Of a stretch of 41,330 nt of DNA, positions 1 through 37,275 are shown piece after piece. Every line of letters begins with the position of its first letter. The stretch's first letter is position 1. A program made the position numbers and the translations under genes. The DNA is from a virus: IMG/VR virus record IMGVR_UViG_3300043446_001780, positions 1-41,330 of that record. One strand, 5' to 3'. Below the pieces are notes generated by a model, which worked only from the letters and a program-made list of their open reading frames with translations, was not told where the DNA came from and ran no database searches.

Positions 1-276
1 GGGCGCCGGCACATTGATGGCGACCGGCGGCTCGCCAGTTTCAACGCAGGCCCAAAACGCGCGCTCATTTGCGACAAGCTGCGCCTGCGAGAGCGGACAC
101 GCCTCGACCTCAAACACGACGTGCTTCAGCGTGCCAAAGAACACGCTGAGATAGGCCTTCGTCGCGCCCGTCACTTTCATGCAGTGCTGCAGCTGCCAAA
201 AATACTTGCGGACGACCTCGTCCTCCTTGGCAAACGCCGAAACGTGCTTTGCCTCAAAGATTGGCGGCTTATTCAT
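1..276 (-). CDS. YqaJ-type phage exonuclease, middle segment (runs off left edge)
   Basis: This frame continues the exonuclease that begins at 574. It opens with an ATG (276-274) lying inside the last codons of the upstream piece and stays open for 92 codons to the window edge. It contains FEAKHVSAFAKEDEV and a Q-x-x-H-C-M-K-V-T-G stretch, the second half of the YqaJ nuclease core: the E-x-K pair (FEAK) is catalytic and the QLQHCMKVTG helix is typical of this lambda-exonuclease-like fold. The C-terminus is at the other edge of the window (41144-41330). Known role of the family: 5'-3' degradation of double-stranded DNA ends to feed a single-strand annealing protein, here the ERF protein encoded just downstream on the circle. 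Whether this piece is made by re-initiation at the overlapping ATG or by a frameshift cannot be told from sequence. Confidence 0.8.
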   Translation of the reverse strand, partial: MNKPPIFEAKHVSAFAKEDEVVRKYFWQLQHCMKVTGATKAYLSVFFGTLKHVVFEVEACPLSQAQLVANERAFWACVETGEPPVAINVPAP

Positions 277-574
277 CGACCACCTCTCCATCCAGATTGC
301 AGCGCATCCACGGATGCTCATCACTGACGCGCGTATCGCCGCGCGAAATCACCCGCTTGCCGGTAGTCCGCTCAAACCACGCCGCGTTGAACGGCTCGGT
401 CCAGACGCCCATCTGCACGGGCAGGACGTCGTCGAGTTTTTCGGGCTCAATCTCGCCGCGCTTCTCGCGCCACAGGCGCAGGATTTTCTCTTCGTCGCCG
501 CCCATGATGATGGTGGCGTCAGAGCCACCGATGCCGAGCTTGCGCGCGGCGTGCCACTCAGCGTCGTGCGCCAT
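269..574 (-). CDS. YqaJ-type phage exonuclease, N-terminal segment (frame broken)
   Basis: A 101-residue piece starting MAHDAEWHAARKLGIGGSDA. W-H-x-x-R and the GIGGSDA motif mark the N-terminus of YqaJ-family recombination exonucleases. It ends in RCNLDGEVVDE-stop, where family members continue without a break into the acidic active site and the E-x-K strand. That continuation (FEAKHVSAF) lies immediately downstream in another frame, so one base separates two halves of one domain. The start ATG (574-572) overlaps the TGA of the upstream gene as TGATG, which supports translational coupling and this start. Neither half should be a nuclease alone. A sequence error, a decayed gene or a programmed shift at GTC-GAT-GAA-TAA are all possible. 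Confidence 0.8.
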   Translation of the reverse strand: MAHDAEWHAARKLGIGGSDATIIMGGDEEKILRLWREKRGEIEPEKLDDVLPVQMGVWTEPFNAAWFERTTGKRVISRGDTRVSDEHPWMRCNLDGEVVDE

Positions 575-801
575 CAGCCCGTCACCTTCGCAAACCGCAT
601 CTCGCGATTGAAGGCGACGACGGCGCGAGCCAAGTCGTCGGCCTGCTCCAGCGGGCAAGAAAAGATGATGTCGTGGCCGTAGAAATTGCGGCTGGCCGTG
701 TCATGCAGAACAAGCCGCACGCGCCCGGTGGCGTTGGCCTCCTCCACCTTGAGGACGGGACCGCCCTCAATCTCGTAAAGCGGGATGGAATTGTTTTTCA
801 C
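574..801 (-). CDS. Small early protein of unknown function (75 aa)
   Basis: The GTG start at 801 is preceded by AGGAG at good spacing, and the stop overlaps the exonuclease ATG. The protein begins VKNNSIPLYEIEGGPVLKVE and ends MRFAKVTG. It is soluble-looking, mixed alpha/beta, with no motif I recognise. A longer upstream reading of the same frame exists but would cover the neighbouring gene and lacks a ribosome site. Its place directly before the exonuclease suggests an early recombination or host-takeover accessory role, which is inference from position only. Confidence 0.6.
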   Translation of the reverse strand: MKNNSIPLYEIEGGPVLKVEEANATGRVRLVLHDTASRNFYGHDIIFSCPLEQADDLARAVVAFNREMRFAKVTG

Positions 802-2103: not shown

Positions 2104-2745
2104 TCAGAACGTCGTCGCCGGCTTGACGAACTCCAGCACGAAAGCCTTGACTTCTACGCTGCCGTCGCCGCCTAGCTTGATCGCCGTCTGAAACGCCGGA
2201 TCGTCGCTGTCTGGCTCCAAAACAAAGCCTGTATGCCGGTTGCCCACGACCTTTTTCACGGTCGTCTCAATCCTTCCATCCGCGTCTCGGCGTTCCGCCA
2301 CGACCCAATCGCCATGCTGGAAATCGCGCGGCGCGGCGTGGACGTCGAGGCACAGCACCAAATCGCCGTCCTTCGCATGCCGGTTGATTGAAGTGCCTCT
2401 AACGCGAAGCAAGTAAACTGACTTCTCAGGCCATCTTGCATCAACAACGATGGTCGAGGGAATTGGCTCGAAATGCACGCCTGGTTCCGCCCATACGCCT
2501 GCCGCCACATCTCCAATAATTGATGCAGTGGTGATTTTTTGCCCATCTGATCTACTTGACTTAACCGTTGCCGGAGCGTCAACATCCAGGTATCGCGCAA
2601 TTATCGCAATTTCTCGCGCTTTAATTTCACGTTTTCCACTCAAAAAATTGGTTACAACTGCTGGGTGTCTTCCAAGCGCCTTCGCCAGACCAGCTCTAGT
2701 TTTTCCAGGCTTTTCAAGCCCGTCTAAAATCCACTGAATGTCCAT
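2104..2745 (-). CDS. CI-type repressor with S24/LexA self-cleavage domain (213 aa)
   Basis: Residues 1-55 form a helix-turn-helix of the XRE/Cro-CI type (AGLAKALGRHPAVVTNFLSG). Residues 75-210 form a LexA/S24 peptidase domain. The cleavage site Ala82-Gly83 (DVAAGVW), the serine nucleophile Ser119 (VRGTSINRH) and a lysine at 164/165 (TTVKKV) are all present. In this family, RecA filaments on damaged DNA trigger self-cleavage, which inactivates the repressor and induces the prophage. The gene faces the Cro-like gene across a 140-base control region and is the only leftward gene between the two early promoters. It probably holds both promoters off through the shared 17-bp operator; the match is inferred, not shown. 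Confidence 0.93.
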   Translation of the reverse strand: MDIQWILDGLEKPGKTRAGLAKALGRHPAVVTNFLSGKREIKAREIAIIARYLDVDAPATVKSSRSDGQKITTASIIGDVAAGVWAEPGVHFEPIPSTIVVDARWPEKSVYLLRVRGTSINRHAKDGDLVLCLDVHAAPRDFQHGDWVVAERRDADGRIETTVKKVVGNRHTGFVLEPDSDDPAFQTAIKLGGDGSVEVKAFVLEFVKPATTF

Positions 2746-3572: not shown

Positions 3573-3598
3573 CCTCGGCCTACGGGCCGGGGTTTTTT
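3573..3598 (+). terminator. Rho-independent terminator after the cro operon
   Basis: Stem CCTCGGCC (3573-3580), loop TACG, stem GGCCGGGG (3585-3592, one T-G wobble), then six T (3593-3598). Placed like the first early terminator of lambdoid phages. All genes further right would need readthrough, antitermination or their own promoter, and no antiterminator is recognised. Confidence 0.85.
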
Positions 3599-3618: not shown

Positions 3619-4890
3619 ATGCAGACGGTTGAAATCCCGGTTTCCGATGTTCGTCTGGTGATGGAGCTTTATCCGCGCCTTGAGACGAAGATGATTGACA
3701 GCTTGGTCGAGCAATATCGCGACGCGATTGAAGATTTGCCGCCGATTGTTGTCGCACGTGGTGGCATTTTGGTTGACGGGATGCACCGTTGGCAAGCGCA
3801 TATCCGCGAAAAGCGCGAGACAATCAAGGCTGTCGACCTTGGCGACATTTCCGACGCTGAGATTTTCTCGGAAGCTGTTCGGCTGAACGCGAGCCACGGG
3901 CGCCAGCTCAGCCGTTCTGAAAAGAAGAACGTCGCGGCGCGGTTCTGGGCGGATATGGCGCATATCGAAGAAGGCGAGCGCCTTGCCGAAATCATGCGCC
4001 GCCTGTCGATGGGCAAGCAGGCGGTTTACGACGCGACCAAGGACGCTCGCAAGGAAGAGAAGCGCGCCAAGCAGGACAAGGCCATTGATATGTGGCTGGA
4101 CTGCTACACTGACGCTGAAATTGCCGAAGCTGTTGATGTGACAGATCGGACGATCGCAGGATGGACCGAAAAAATTCCGGAAACGGAAAAATTTCGCCTG
4201 CCCCCCGGCTCCGACAAAGACACCCCTTGGGGCCGCGTCCAGCACTTCGACGTCTGGAACATCGGCACGGACGGCGGCGACGGCAAATATTTCGGCAAGA
4301 TGCCACCTGCCATCGTTGAGAACCTTCTCTGGCTTTACACCGCCCCAGGCGAAATCGTCTTCGACCCGTTTGGCGGTTCTGGCACGACGATTAAGGTCGC
4401 CAAGGCTATGGGCCGTCGTGTCTGGTCAAGCGACAGGCGCGGCAATGCATGGGATCCGACACAGCCTATCCACATTCACGACATTACGACCGGCTGGCCG
4501 AGCGACGCACCGAAAAAAGTCGACCTTGTCATTCTTGACCCGCCTTACTGGCAGCAGGCCAAGGGGCGCTATGACGAAGACGCCGCCGAATGCCTTGGCA
4601 ACATGTCGCTAAGCGATTTTTACGCTGCGTGGGACCGCGTCGTAGAAGCGATTTCCGGCCACGCCAAGCGGGCCGCATTCATCATCAGCCCGACCCAAAA
4701 CGAAGACGGCAGCGTCGAAGACCACGCTTTTGAGATGGCTGGCTCGTTCCACGCCGCCGGCTGGCGCACCGAGCGTCGCATCATTGTCCCGTATTCGACA
4801 CAGCAGGCTACCGGCCAGCAGGTGACATGGGCGCGCGAAAACAAGCGGCTGCTGAAACTCTACCGCGACTTGGTTGTGGTTTCGATATGA
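3619..4890 (+). CDS. ParB-like domain fused to DNA methyltransferase (423 aa)
   Basis: Residues 1-95 form a ParB/Srx-type domain with the signature LVDGMHRW (51-58, G-x-H-R). A helix-turn-helix follows at about 164-185 (TDAEIAEAVDVTDRTIAGW). Residues 215-423 are an N6-adenine/N4-cytosine methyltransferase: the AdoMet-binding motif FDPFGGSGTT (248-257) comes before the catalytic DPPYW (307-311). FGG-first order differs from the usual beta class (DPPY first), although the sequence around the FGG motif looks beta-like, so the enzyme appears circularly permuted. Expected activity is methylation of phage (and host) DNA at a sequence selected by the HTH/ParB part, either to escape host restriction or to shape transcription. 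The stop overlaps the ATG of a putative nuclease (4887). The ribosome site is weak (AGTGAG), and the gene follows directly on a terminator. Confidence 0.85.
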   Translation: MQTVEIPVSDVRLVMELYPRLETKMIDSLVEQYRDAIEDLPPIVVARGGILVDGMHRWQAHIREKRETIKAVDLGDISDAEIFSEAVRLNASHGRQLSRSEKKNVAARFWADMAHIEEGERLAEIMRRLSMGKQAVYDATKDARKEEKRAKQDKAIDMWLDCYTDAEIAEAVDVTDRTIAGWTEKIPETEKFRLPPGSDKDTPWGRVQHFDVWNIGTDGGDGKYFGKMPPAIVENLLWLYTAPGEIVFDPFGGSGTTIKVAKAMGRRVWSSDRRGNAWDPTQPIHIHDITTGWPSDAPKKVDLVILDPPYWQQAKGRYDEDAAECLGNMSLSDFYAAWDRVVEAISGHAKRAAFIISPTQNEDGSVEDHAFEMAGSFHAAGWRTERRIIVPYSTQQATGQQVTWARENKRLLKLYRDLVVVSI

Positions 4891-5426
4891 GCGAAGGGTT
4901 CGCATATCGCATAGCGCTTGCCGAGCACCATGAAAAATGGGTGCTTGCGAAGTTGCGCGAGCTTTATGGGAGCCGAATAAAACACGCTGAGCCATTTGGG
5001 CAGGCTTTGTTCAGCCATCAGCTCAGGGAGTATCTGCGCCGGGTCAGAACAAAATCCGGCGCAGAAACATTAATCAGGTGGCTCCCAGACATCATCTGCG
5101 TTGGCATTGACGACAGATGCTTTCTTGTCGAAGCGAAGTCTGGCGATGGCTGGAAGAAATACGGAAACCACAGCGTTGAGAACAAGAGTTTAGAAGCCGC
5201 CAGCAAATTTGAGAAAGAGTTTGAAACCGACGTATGGTTCATTTTTTCGGATGGCCGTGGCGAAAAGGCGTCGGTGCTGAATAGCCATCCAGGGAAAAAA
5301 CCTGGCCATTATTCCGGTAACGGCAGCGGCACACCGTTTTCATTGTGGCCGGCTGATAAGCTCACCCAACGCATAGCGCCGACGCCGACGTTTCTAATGG
5401 ACGTTTCAGCGGAGAAATCCGCATGA
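4887..5426 (+). CDS. Putative PD-(D/E)XK nuclease paired with the methyltransferase (179 aa)
   Basis: The ATG at 4887 overlaps the methyltransferase TGA (ATGA), the reason for choosing it over a start 60 bases upstream. Residues 66-84 read LPDIICVGIDDRCFLVEAK: Pro-Asp (67-68), a 12-residue hairpin, then hydrophobic-Glu-Ala-Lys (82-84), the core of PD-(D/E)XK endonucleases. A helix with conserved-looking acidic and lysine residues follows (NKSLEAASKFEKEF). The N-terminal 60 residues are basic and helical and could bind DNA. Coupled translation with a methyltransferase suggests a restriction-modification-like pair or a nuclease guided by methylation state. Other nuclease roles (resolvase-like, replication) are possible. 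I do not recognise a named family and the assignment rests on the motif and context. Confidence 0.6.
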   Translation: MSEGFAYRIALAEHHEKWVLAKLRELYGSRIKHAEPFGQALFSHQLREYLRRVRTKSGAETLIRWLPDIICVGIDDRCFLVEAKSGDGWKKYGNHSVENKSLEAASKFEKEFETDVWFIFSDGRGEKASVLNSHPGKKPGHYSGNGSGTPFSLWPADKLTQRIAPTPTFLMDVSAEKSA

Positions 5427-5875: not shown

Positions 5876-6266
5876 GACTGTCCGCAATTTCCTGTTCAAC
5901 CAGCGCCGGCACGGGCGCGATTTCGCGACATGCGCCGCCAATCTGTCCGACTGGTTTGCCGAAGAGATAACGGCCGACGAGGTTGAAGCGCTGTGGAATG
6001 AGATGATTGCCGCCAAGTGGGTGGCGCAGAAGCGCAATCATCAGCCGAAGTCGAAGCACCCGTTTGCTGGCGAAGACCCTGCGGCTGAAAAGGTTCGGCT
6101 GAAGAACGCCAACATCATGCACCTGGTCGACCTCAAGCGCGCTGGCCACAGCCCAACCCGCACCGAATACGTCATCAGCGCCGAAGGCAAGGGTGTGAAA
6201 TACGCCACGACGCCGACGTCGAGCTATCTCGGCAGCGCCGCCGCCACCTGTGTGGAGCAGGCCTGA
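5862..6266 (+). CDS. Hypothetical protein, possibly DNA-binding (134 aa)
   Basis: Begins MIVNETVRNFLFNQRRHGRD. The first 60 residues (DFATCAANLSDWFAEEITAD then EVEALWNEMIAAKWV) look like a winged-helix-like arrangement, and residues 60-134 are basic and low in motif content. It overlaps the end of rusA by 14 bases and its TGA overlaps the ATG of the gcrA-like gene. No family recognised; operon position suggests a replication or transcription accessory role. Confidence 0.6.
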   Translation: MIVNETVRNFLFNQRRHGRDFATCAANLSDWFAEEITADEVEALWNEMIAAKWVAQKRNHQPKSKHPFAGEDPAAEKVRLKNANIMHLVDLKRAGHSPTRTEYVISAEGKGVKYATTPTSSYLGSAAATCVEQA

Positions 6267-6787
6267 TGACCGAGCCGGCCCAAACGCACCGCAACTGGAA
6301 CGCCTGGTCGGAGGCTGACGACGCGCGCCTGCGCGAGCTGATTGCTGAAAACCTGTCTTACGCCGCCATCGGCAAGCTCATGGGCCGGAACAAAAATAGC
6401 TGCATCGGCCGGGCGCATAGGCTGTCCATTCACACCCGCGACACCAAGCCCATCAGCGTCCGCAAGGTGAAGAAGGACGTCGCCAAGGCGGTTGTGAAGC
6501 TGTTTCCGCCGAAGCCGGCGCCAGAGCCCGTTGAGGCCGCATCGGCCCAGGATAACCGTCCGCAGGCTCGTTACGAGCAGCCGGAGGCCGCGACGACGCC
6601 GTTCGGCATCCCGCGCACCCTGATGGGCCTGCAGCCGCACCATTGCCGCTGGCCTGTCTCCGGCGAGCGCGGCGACACGCTGTTCTGCTGCGCTCAGCGC
6701 GAAGGCCTCGGCCCATACTGCGCGGAACATCGCGCAGTCGCGTGGCGCCCGACGCAGCGCCAGCTCACGACGAAGGCCTACAGATGA
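6266..6787 (+). CDS. gcrA: GcrA-family cell-cycle transcription regulator homologue (173 aa)
   Basis: Residues 11-55 (WNAWSEADDARLRELIAENL then SYAAIGKLMGRNKNSCIGRA) match the GcrA N-terminal DNA-binding domain. After a Pro/Ala-rich linker the C-terminal part has the family cysteine cluster: CRWPVSGERG (127-136), LFCC (139-142) and GPYCAEHRAVAW (149-160). In Caulobacter and relatives GcrA binds sigma-70 holoenzyme and activates promoters carrying CcrM-methylated GANTC sites. A phage copy could redirect host polymerase or tie phage expression to the host cell cycle. The presence of a phage methyltransferase three genes upstream makes a methylation link attractive, but there is no evidence that it makes the mark this GcrA reads. 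Stop and start overlap the neighbours by 4 bases or fewer. Confidence 0.88.
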   Translation: MTEPAQTHRNWNAWSEADDARLRELIAENLSYAAIGKLMGRNKNSCIGRAHRLSIHTRDTKPISVRKVKKDVAKAVVKLFPPKPAPEPVEAASAQDNRPQARYEQPEAATTPFGIPRTLMGLQPHHCRWPVSGERGDTLFCCAQREGLGPYCAEHRAVAWRPTQRQLTTKAYR

Positions 6788-36279: not shown

Positions 36280-37275
36280 CTACACCGATTTCTTAACACC
36301 GATCACCGGGAAGCGATCACTGGCCCGCGCGGCGTCAGGCACGCTGACGTGTTTGTAACGCTCTGCCGCCGCCAGCGACTTCCACGCGCCGGTCGCCACC
36401 AGACCGGATGTGTCCAGCCCGCCATAGCGGTGCAAGTAGGTGCCGAATGTGTGGCGGAAGGCGTGAAAGCGCGTGCCGTCCGGGATCATCACGCCGACCG
36501 CGTCAGAGACAGCCTTGAGGCGGTCGTTGAACTTGCTGCCCTTGTGAAAGCGGAACAGTCGTCCCGTCCGGTCAAAACCGCGCGGGTGGTTCGCCAGCGC
36601 CGCCACCAACGCCGGCGGCAGATGCACGCGCCTTGGTTCGCCGTTCTTGGTCTTTCCAATGAATGCCGAGGCATGCTGTAGTTCGACATCATCCACACGC
36701 ACCGACAGCCCTTCGCTGACTCGGCAGCCGGTGTAGAACAGGAAGGTCAGGAACAGCCCAAACTCAGCGTCGCCGGCATAGGCATGGTTGATGATGGCCT
36801 CGACCTGTTCCGGCAGGAAAAAGAACTCCCTTCGCGCGCCATTGGCTCCTTTCGGGCGCTTCAGCCGGATCTCGACGTCGGAATGACGCAGGATGGCCGA
36901 CATCGGCGTGAACACCTGCCGGTTGCGTGTGCAGGGTTTCGCATTTGGATAGAGCGCGAAGGACGCATCCTCGATCGCCTGTCTGGTGATCTCGGCAAGC
37001 GGCTTGTCGCCAAAATAGGTCACCAGCTTGTCGATAAATTTCTTGTCTTTGCCGACGTCGCGCGTATAGCGATGGACCGCGTCAAGGAACGTCGGCCCTA
37101 GCTTTTTTTGAAAGCGACCACGTTCGATGTCGTCGATACGCGCTTTGAGGACTTTGGCCGCGACGGCTCGCGTAGCAGCTCGCGTACTCTCATTAACTTT
37201 GACGCCGAGGTAAGTTCCTCGAATTCGCCAGTAGGGCGAGAGCCCTTCTCTTGGTGGCACAAGTTTGATTGGCAT
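36280..37275 (-). CDS. int: Tyrosine site-specific recombinase, phage integrase (331 aa)
   Basis: N-terminal arm and core-binding part (MPIKLVPPREGLSPYWRIRG; RGRFQKKLGPTFLDAVHRYT), then catalytic domain: Arg185 (YTGCRVSEGL), a lysine in GKTKNGEPRRVHL (208-220), HAFRHTFG (His271, Arg274), Trp298 (TGAWKS) and nucleophile Tyr307 (AAERYKHV). All residues needed are present. It inserts the phage at a tRNA-Thr gene through the attP core lying 60 bases beyond its stop. The first 178 bases overlap the 3' part of the excisionase frame. The N-terminal sequence is typical, so the start is credible. Confidence 0.95.
   Translation of the reverse strand: MPIKLVPPREGLSPYWRIRGTYLGVKVNESTRAATRAVAAKVLKARIDDIERGRFQKKLGPTFLDAVHRYTRDVGKDKKFIDKLVTYFGDKPLAEITRQAIEDASFALYPNAKPCTRNRQVFTPMSAILRHSDVEIRLKRPKGANGARREFFFLPEQVEAIINHAYAGDAEFGLFLTFLFYTGCRVSEGLSVRVDDVELQHASAFIGKTKNGEPRRVHLPPALVAALANHPRGFDRTGRLFRFHKGSKFNDRLKAVSDAVGVMIPDGTRFHAFRHTFGTYLHRYGGLDTSGLVATGAWKSLAAAERYKHVSVPDAARASDRFPVIGVKKSV

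What the first reader, a model, noticed from the sequence alone, without database searches (positions are those of the whole stretch)
3619..5426. ParB-methyltransferase fusion coupled to a PD-(D/E)XK nuclease
A ParB-like domain with an intact G-x-H-R motif, an HTH and a DNA methyltransferase with FGG-before-DPPY order are in one chain, and the gene overlaps by ATGA with a protein carrying PD-x12-EAK. A methylase with a directly coupled nuclease looks like a compact restriction-modification-like or methyl-guided exclusion system in a temperate phage. The pair could protect the lysogen against other phages or degrade unmodified DNA while the phage DNA is marked. ParB domains in recent work bind or hydrolyse CTP, so target selection could depend on nucleotide-driven sliding.
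Basis: partly seen in the sequence, partly recalled or inferred. Interest (0 to 1): 0.7.

Follow-up and report, generated by a model that had tools for sequence, protein, structure and literature searches.

The report
ParB-methylase with swappable partner nuclease
Many uncultured phages carry a two-gene cassette in which a DNA-marking enzyme with an exchangeable DNA-reading part is tightly coupled to one of several unrelated small proteins that look like DNA-cutting enzymes, as if phages use a previously undescribed kind of mark-and-cut system.

Summary
ORF 3619-4890 is a ParB-N / two-HTH / N6_N4 DNA methyltransferase chain with motif I before DPPY and no TRD insert. ORF 4887-5426 overlaps it by ATGA and carries a PD-x13-EAK signature.

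IMG/VR gave 75 usable methylase loci. In 67 the next, usually overlapping, gene is a small protein with a PD-(D/E)XK or D-E-K signature. These partners fall into at least three families (A, B, C) with no detectable mutual homology, exchanged at least 13 times on the methylase tree. The window's nuclease (family A) matches Hjc resolvases at four catalytic positions, though weakly (E = 0.007).

The HTH segment is the hypervariable part of the methylase. Two phages differing at 18 positions over 15.75 kb differ at 164 positions inside this 1.2-kb gene; amino-acid change concentrates in the second HTH, and the coupled nuclease stays 99% identical.

Best explanation (inferred): a phage restriction-modification-like cassette. 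The HTH sets the target for modification, and a small nuclease recruited or licensed by the methylase attacks unmarked DNA, with Type III mod/res-like logic but no helicase. ParB-methylase fusions were known; partner swapping and HTH switching appear undescribed in the literature searched. Nothing was tested at the bench.

The parts
3619..4890 (+). ParB-N / HTH / HTH / N6_N4-type DNA methyltransferase, 423 aa
   Evidence: Pfam N6_N4_Mtase 2.3e-16; AF2 model pLDDT 80.8; N half matches Noc/ParB, C half matches TrmN/Trm14/Trm11 (VIA Z 16.7-15)
3619..3912 (+). ParB-N (NTPase-type) domain, residues 1-98; GxxR (P motif) at 3778-3789
   Evidence: Foldseek 7nfu 3.6e-6; G54/R57 conserved 65/65
3913..4218 (+). 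two helix-turn-helix units, residues 99-200: hypervariable, proposed target-recognition cassette (second HTH residues 161-200 = 4099-4218)
4285..4887 (+). methyltransferase core, residues 223-423, motif X-I (4357-4389) before IV DPPYW (4537-4551), no TRD insertion
   Evidence: alignment A4, DPPYW invariant in 68/68, model
4887..5426 (+). coupled family-A PD-(D/E)XK (Hjc-like) nuclease, 179 aa; E16 (4932-4934), PD (5085-5090), EAK (5130-5138), E98 (5178-5180)
   Evidence: ATGA overlap; conserved residues; profile match to Hjc-like 2eo0 E 0.0073 and Hjc 1hh1 with E12/D42/E55/K57 collinear
3573..3592 (+). intrinsic-terminator-like hairpin just upstream of the methylase
   Evidence: terminator-like sites in this stretch are no more frequent than in shuffles: 7 against 6.3

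Best explanation
A phage-borne, two-gene restriction-modification-like cassette. The first protein is the modification and specificity subunit: its ParB/HTH half chooses the DNA (the second HTH is the switchable target-recognition part) and its TRD-less Rossmann half methylates it. The second, translationally coupled protein is a small exchangeable PD-(D/E)XK nuclease. Because the HTH changes while the nuclease stays identical, the nuclease most likely has no matching specificity of its own and is directed by, or licensed through, the ParB-HTH-methylase; it would attack DNA lacking the mark (host, co-infecting or superinfecting DNA) while the phage's own DNA is marked. Shown by sequence: architecture, coupling, conservation, repeated partner replacement, HTH switching. 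Inferred: methylation, cleavage, recruitment, and the target. NTP-driven sliding by the ParB domain is a guess.
For: Coupled partner in 67 of 75 loci; 51 of 71 partner genes overlap the methylase stop, 33 of these by exactly 4 bases. Partners: A 29, B 17, C 19, B/C-like 2. A, B and C show no profile homology to each other, yet each keeps D plus E-x-K (A, B) or D-E-K (C). At least 13 changes of partner type on the methylase tree. A matches Hjc at four catalytic positions. Weak Pfam hits of B include four PD-(D/E)XK families. Nuclease under purifying selection, dN/dS 0.07-0.17 within L027/L028/L029. HTH lowest in identity in 95% of 167 close pairs. L006/L026: ParBN 89%, HTH 43%, MTase 91%, nuclease 100%. 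G662 vs G664: 164 differences in the methylase against 18 in the other 15,752 bases. L026 vs L010: pN 0.44 at residues 161-200 against 0.00-0.11 elsewhere, while pS is high throughout residues 1-222. Type III mod alleles show the same pattern (conserved N/C over 90%, recognition domain typically under 40%; PMC4751487).
Against: No enzyme activity, methylation motif or cleavage is known. The nuclease has no helicase or ATPase, unlike Type I/III restriction subunits. No physical contact between the proteins was shown. Family C has only a displaced-lysine D-E-K pattern and may not be a nuclease. Eight of 75 loci lack a recognised partner (L002 keeps only a remnant), so the methylase can do without. 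Some close methylases with the same HTH have very different nucleases (L077/L078: HTH 93%, partner 41%).
Confidence: 0.5

Rival explanations
1. Two functions in one operon: the methylase is an anti-restriction enzyme whose HTH diversifies to change which host sites are protected, and the small nuclease is an independent resolvase-like enzyme (Hjc-like) for phage recombination, repair or packaging.
For: Best profile match of the nuclease is Hjc; the genes lie among recombination genes (RusA next door, YqaJ in the window). Kaljevic et al. 2025 suggest anti-defence or phage-host roles for phage ParB-methylase fusions (PMC12704722). A relative, MW202554, has a ParB-methylase without a nuclease.
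Against: The window phage already has RusA directly downstream. A resolvase role does not explain why the nuclease is almost always attached to this methylase, is replaced by unrelated families in the same slot, and is not found apart from it in the phage and plasmid searches.
Confidence: 0.22
2. The HTH binds a parS- or operator-like site in the phage's own genome; the protein loads there and slides to mark phage DNA in cis, and the nuclease nicks or processes phage DNA for replication or packaging.
For: Real ParB-N fold with intact GxxR. BCE_0392, a prophage ParB-methylase, showed nicking-associated concatenation in vivo, and a packaging or replication role was proposed (PMC3459991, PMC5512222).
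Against: In two near-identical phages the HTH was switched with no co-varying site in 15.5 kb downstream and about 220 bases upstream; the rest of the genomes was only partly compared.
Confidence: 0.15
3. Type IV-like logic: the methylase marks foreign or host DNA and the nuclease cuts marked DNA.
For: Would also need an HTH-programmed mark and an unspecific nuclease, so the same sequence data fit.
Against: The phage's own DNA would have to escape the mark while the enzyme is made from it; no reader domain was seen in the 130-210 aa nucleases.
Confidence: 0.07

Closest known systems
Phage ParB-N6_N4 methyltransferase fusions (Kaljevic et al. 2025, PMC12704722; BCE_0392, PMC3459991)
   Same: ParB-CTPase fold fused to a DNA methylase in phages and prophages, GxxR motif
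   Different: Nothing on a coupled nuclease, partner swapping or HTH switching appeared in the passages read; no relative in cultured phages beyond about 30% identity over part of the methylase half
Type III restriction-modification (mod/res, e.g. phage P1 EcoP1I)
   Same: Modification subunit with a hypervariable recognition domain inside otherwise conserved domains; restriction subunit that does not follow it; phage-borne examples exist (PMC2962900, PMC4751487)
   Different: The partner is a 130-210 aa protein without helicase; the methylase is not in beta order (FGG before DPPY); recognition is proposed to lie in an HTH, not a TRD; a ParB domain is present; the partner is exchanged among unrelated families
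Type II restriction-modification
   Same: Methylase plus a small PD-(D/E)XK protein in one operon; nuclease evolves faster than the methylase
   Different: A Type II enzyme has its own specificity; here the proposed specificity part of the methylase changes while the nuclease stays 99-100% identical
Archaeal Hjc Holliday junction resolvase
   Same: E12, D42, E55-x-K57 collinear with E16, D68, E82-x-K84
   Different: E = 0.007 only; extra C-terminal region with an invariant T149 (G-S-G-T-P-F/Y); always beside the methylase in the loci seen
Trm14/TrmN/Trm11 methyltransferases
   Same: Unpermuted Rossmann core, closest solved folds to the methylase half (Z 16.7 to 15)
   Different: ParB-HTH in front instead of a THUMP domain; those are RNA enzymes

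Membership tests
ParB/Srx (ParB-CTPase fold) | ParB-N fold with GxxR P motif | tested here: met
   Foldseek to Noc/ParB 3.6e-6; G54 and R57 65/65
ParB/Srx (ParB-CTPase fold) | binds or hydrolyses an NTP | not testable with these tools
   PMC12704722 states that nucleotide specificity cannot be predicted reliably from sequence
ParABS partition system | partner ParA and C-terminal dimerisation domain | tested here: inconclusive
   The C-terminal half is a methylase core, not a ParB dimerisation domain; the window was not searched for parA
N6/N4 DNA methyltransferase | SAM motif I and (D/N/S)PP(Y/F) motif IV | tested here: met
   PF01555 2.3e-16; DPPYW 68/68
PD-(D/E)XK nuclease (Hjc-like) | E, PD, (D/E)xK in register | tested here: met
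   D68 and K84 23/23, (D/E)82 20/23, E16 19/23; Hjc alignment, weak E-value 0.0073
PD-(D/E)XK nuclease (Hjc-like) | alpha-beta-beta-beta-alpha-beta core fold | tested here: inconclusive
   AF2 order of elements fits, but pLDDT 63 and no fold match
PD-(D/E)XK nuclease (Hjc-like) | nuclease activity | not testable with these tools
   needs an assay
Type III restriction-modification | recognition domain of Mod varies between alleles, rest conserved | tested here: met
   (that the variable HTH is the recognition part is inferred)
Type III restriction-modification | Mod of beta order (DPPY before FxGxG) | tested here: not met
   FGG 251-253 before DPPY 307-310
Type III restriction-modification | Res subunit with SF2 helicase plus nuclease | tested here: not met
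   coupled protein is 179 aa with no Pfam hit
Type II restriction-modification | nuclease recognises the same site as the methylase by itself | tested here: inconclusive
   argued against by HTH switching with constant nuclease; no activity data

The most novel reading that the evidence does not exclude
A new class of restriction-modification-like system in phages: a ParB clamp with a switchable HTH replaces both the target-recognition domain and the helicase of Type I/III systems, targeting methylation and directing whichever small nuclease is plugged in, with NTP-driven sliding in place of ATP-driven translocation.
Probability: 0.2. Interest if true: 0.92.

Novelty: new variant of a known kind. 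Interest (0 to 1): 0.7.

Why it matters
ParB-methylase fusions in phages are a known domain combination without a known job. The conserved nuclease slot, the repeated replacement of its occupant and the HTH switching in otherwise near-identical phages give a concrete hint of what these proteins do and make it testable with two natural alleles. If the nuclease is guided by the ParB-HTH-methylase, it would be a minimal, modular mark-and-cut system whose target is set by an HTH. It also names two to three undescribed small families (A, B and perhaps C) as candidate nucleases.

Tried and rejected
Close relatives in cultured phages and plasmids: none for the nuclease, only distant methylase halves. 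Bacterial chromosomes: only fragments in 4 MAGs, nothing full length in about 586 genomes of two classes with a strict cut-off; the tool warns that an empty answer without a positive control is weak. Foldseek and VIA-align with the nuclease model gave noise. Profile comparison of partner families A, B and C gave no homology; A1 and A2 are homologous. Pfam, PHROGs and PDB profiles gave nothing above threshold for families B and C. The idea that the ATGA overlap alone is telling was dropped, because RusA overlaps the nuclease in the same way in the window and is not the conserved neighbour. A VRR_NUC set was fetched but not compared, since the Hjc match was clearer.

Full report
WHAT IS THERE. 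The window is an IMG/VR virus record of 41,330 bases. It looks like a temperate tailed phage: S24-type repressor 2107-2745(-), YqaJ exonuclease 272-640(-), integrase 36283-37275(-), small and large terminase, portal. ORF 3619-4890 encodes 423 aa and ORF 4887-5426 encodes 179 aa, with ATG inside the stop of the first gene.

THE METHYLASE. Pfam finds N6_N4_Mtase at 2.3e-16. The AF2 model built on ten sequences has pLDDT 80.8. Its N half matches Noc and ParB N-domains with their HTH (Foldseek 7nfu 3.6e-6). Its C half matches unpermuted methyltransferases of the TrmN/Trm14/Trm11 type (VIA Z 16.7, rmsd 2.4, 154 aligned). Motif I (FDPFGGSGTT) precedes motif IV (LDPPYW), only about 50 residues lie between them, and the chain ends right after the last strand. 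There is therefore no room for a classical target-recognition domain (inference from the model and alignment). GxxR, the P motif of the ParB fold, is present in 65 of 65 relatives with the region, and DPPYW in 68 of 68.

RELATIVES. Scans of IMG/VR with the window protein and a five-row profile found 4 and 12 loci; a further scan with the ten-row profile kept 80 loci. After dropping contig-end cases, 75 loci could be examined for the next gene. The family is not found in cultured phages beyond a distant methylase half, nor in plasmids. In bacterial genomes only fragments were found.

THE PARTNER SLOT. In 67 of 75 loci (58 of 65 after de-replication at 90% methylase identity) the next gene encodes a small protein with a PD-(D/E)XK-like pattern; 51 of 71 partner genes overlap the methylase stop, 33 of them by exactly four bases. 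Single-linkage clustering gave family A1 (17), A2 (9), B (17), C (17) and a few singletons. L038/L041/L074 (weak HMM match, about 1e-3), L051/L083 (read by eye) and L035/L052 (motif by eye) were added by hand. A1 and A2 are homologous (hhalign 99%); A, B and C are not detectably so. Family A keeps R8, D68, K84, E98 and T149; B keeps F13, D34, E59, K61 and Q71, i.e. D / E-x-K / Q; C keeps WHR, D39, D41, E60 and K70, a D-E-K pattern with a displaced lysine. Family C is the least certain nuclease. On a maximum-likelihood methylase tree, at least 13 changes among A1, A2, B and C are needed (quick tree, partner type read from separate genes). L002 keeps the coupled start codon but only a 77-aa remnant without the catalytic part.

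IS IT A NUCLEASE? The AF2 model of the window's protein is poor (pLDDT 63) and matches nothing. A profile of 19 family-A proteins, however, finds in the PDB first ST1444 (2eo0, E 0.0073) and then, with E-values of 1.6-2, three Hjc resolvase entries. The Hjc residues E12, D42, E55 and K57 line up with E16, D68, E82 and K84 (that these are Hjc's catalytic residues, and that ST1444 is an Hjc, is from my own knowledge). Four of eight weak Pfam hits of family-B members are PD-(D/E)XK families (Endonuc_Holl, VRR_NUC, UPF0102, Card1; E 0.04-0.15). Within L027/L028/L029 the nuclease has dN/dS 0.07-0.17, so it is maintained.

THE HTH IS A SWITCHABLE CASSETTE. Among 167 methylase pairs of 60% identity or more, the HTH segment is the least conserved part in 95% (mean identity ParB-N 68%, HTH 50%, methylase 75%). 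L006 and L026 share 89% in ParB-N, 43% in HTH, 91% in the methylase and 100% in the coupled nuclease, with flanking DNA at 97-100% on both sides. The records behind L026 and L011 (G662, G664) align over 16,985 bases with 164 differences in the 1.2-kb methylase gene and 18 in the other 15,752 bases. In L026 versus L010, synonymous divergence is high across residues 1-222 (pS 0.53-0.75), but amino-acid divergence is 0.44 at residues 161-200 and 0.00-0.11 in the other segments; L027 versus L029 shows the same at 126-200. So a diverged allele was recombined in, and selection tolerates or favours change mainly in the second HTH. Type III mod alleles behave the same way: over 90% identity in the N- and C-terminal domains and typically under 40% in the recognition domain (PMC4751487).

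HOW IT MOST LIKELY WORKS. If the nuclease had its own sequence specificity matched to the methylase, switching the HTH alone would be suicidal. The data therefore favour a nuclease without specificity of its own that is recruited or licensed by the ParB-HTH-methylase, or one whose work does not depend on the methylated sequence. The first is the restriction-modification-like reading, which I prefer (0.5). The second is the resolvase/anti-restriction rival (0.22). Replacement of the nuclease by unrelated families, while the methylase including its HTH stays similar (L033 versus L035: 81/90/87% with different partners), fits a plug-in effector in an arms race better than a housekeeping enzyme. 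A cis-site (parS-like) reading is weakened because no site co-varies with the HTH in the 15.5 kb downstream, but the whole genomes were not compared. Position next to the repressor/Cro region suggests early lytic expression rather than lysogenic defence; this is inference from layout, and a terminator-like hairpin lies upstream.

WHAT WAS KNOWN. Phage ParB-N6_N4 fusions were catalogued in 2025 and anti-defence or phage-host roles suggested (PMC12704722). BCE_0392, a prophage ParB-methylase, was reported to have nicking activity, and a packaging or replication role was proposed (PMC5512222, PMC3459991). Literature searches for a ParB-methylase with a coupled nuclease found none; the library lacks most subscription journals and preprints. 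MW202554 has a related ParB-methylase without a nuclease.

CAVEATS. Counts include near-identical contigs; IMG/VR contigs are fragments; partner starts were picked by a simple rule; some partner labels are by eye; the tree is a quick one. No function was demonstrated.

Noticed in passing
window 6266-6787 (+): A phage-borne GcrA-like gene (PF07750, 4.5e-19), the alphaproteobacterial cell-cycle regulator that elsewhere reads CcrM methylation, lies three genes downstream of the nuclease; whether the two are connected is unknown.
   Followed up: no
L012 5890-6369, L016 7872-8303, L017 7947-8342: Stray fragments holding only residues about 131-225 (second HTH and linker) of the family, three of them starting within a few residues of each other; decayed copies or loose HTH cassettes. 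The scan pattern lies inside this segment, so ascertainment is biased.
   Followed up: partly
L003 7224-7964, L007 1524-2150: Two family-A nucleases carry an inserted cysteine-rich, zinc-finger-like segment (CCxxC ... YC).
   Followed up: no
L056 7251-8051: In the nuclease slot sits a 266-aa protein whose start reminds of a HARE-HTH; no Pfam or PHROG hit above threshold.
   Followed up: no
L044 7284-7655, L059 6485-6856: Two related loci have an unidentified 123-aa protein with a 4-base overlap in the nuclease slot.
   Followed up: no
L077 7272-7838 and L078 6069-6626: Methylases 90% identical (HTH 93%) but coupled family-B proteins only 41% identical: the nuclease changes independently of the HTH too.
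   Followed up: partly
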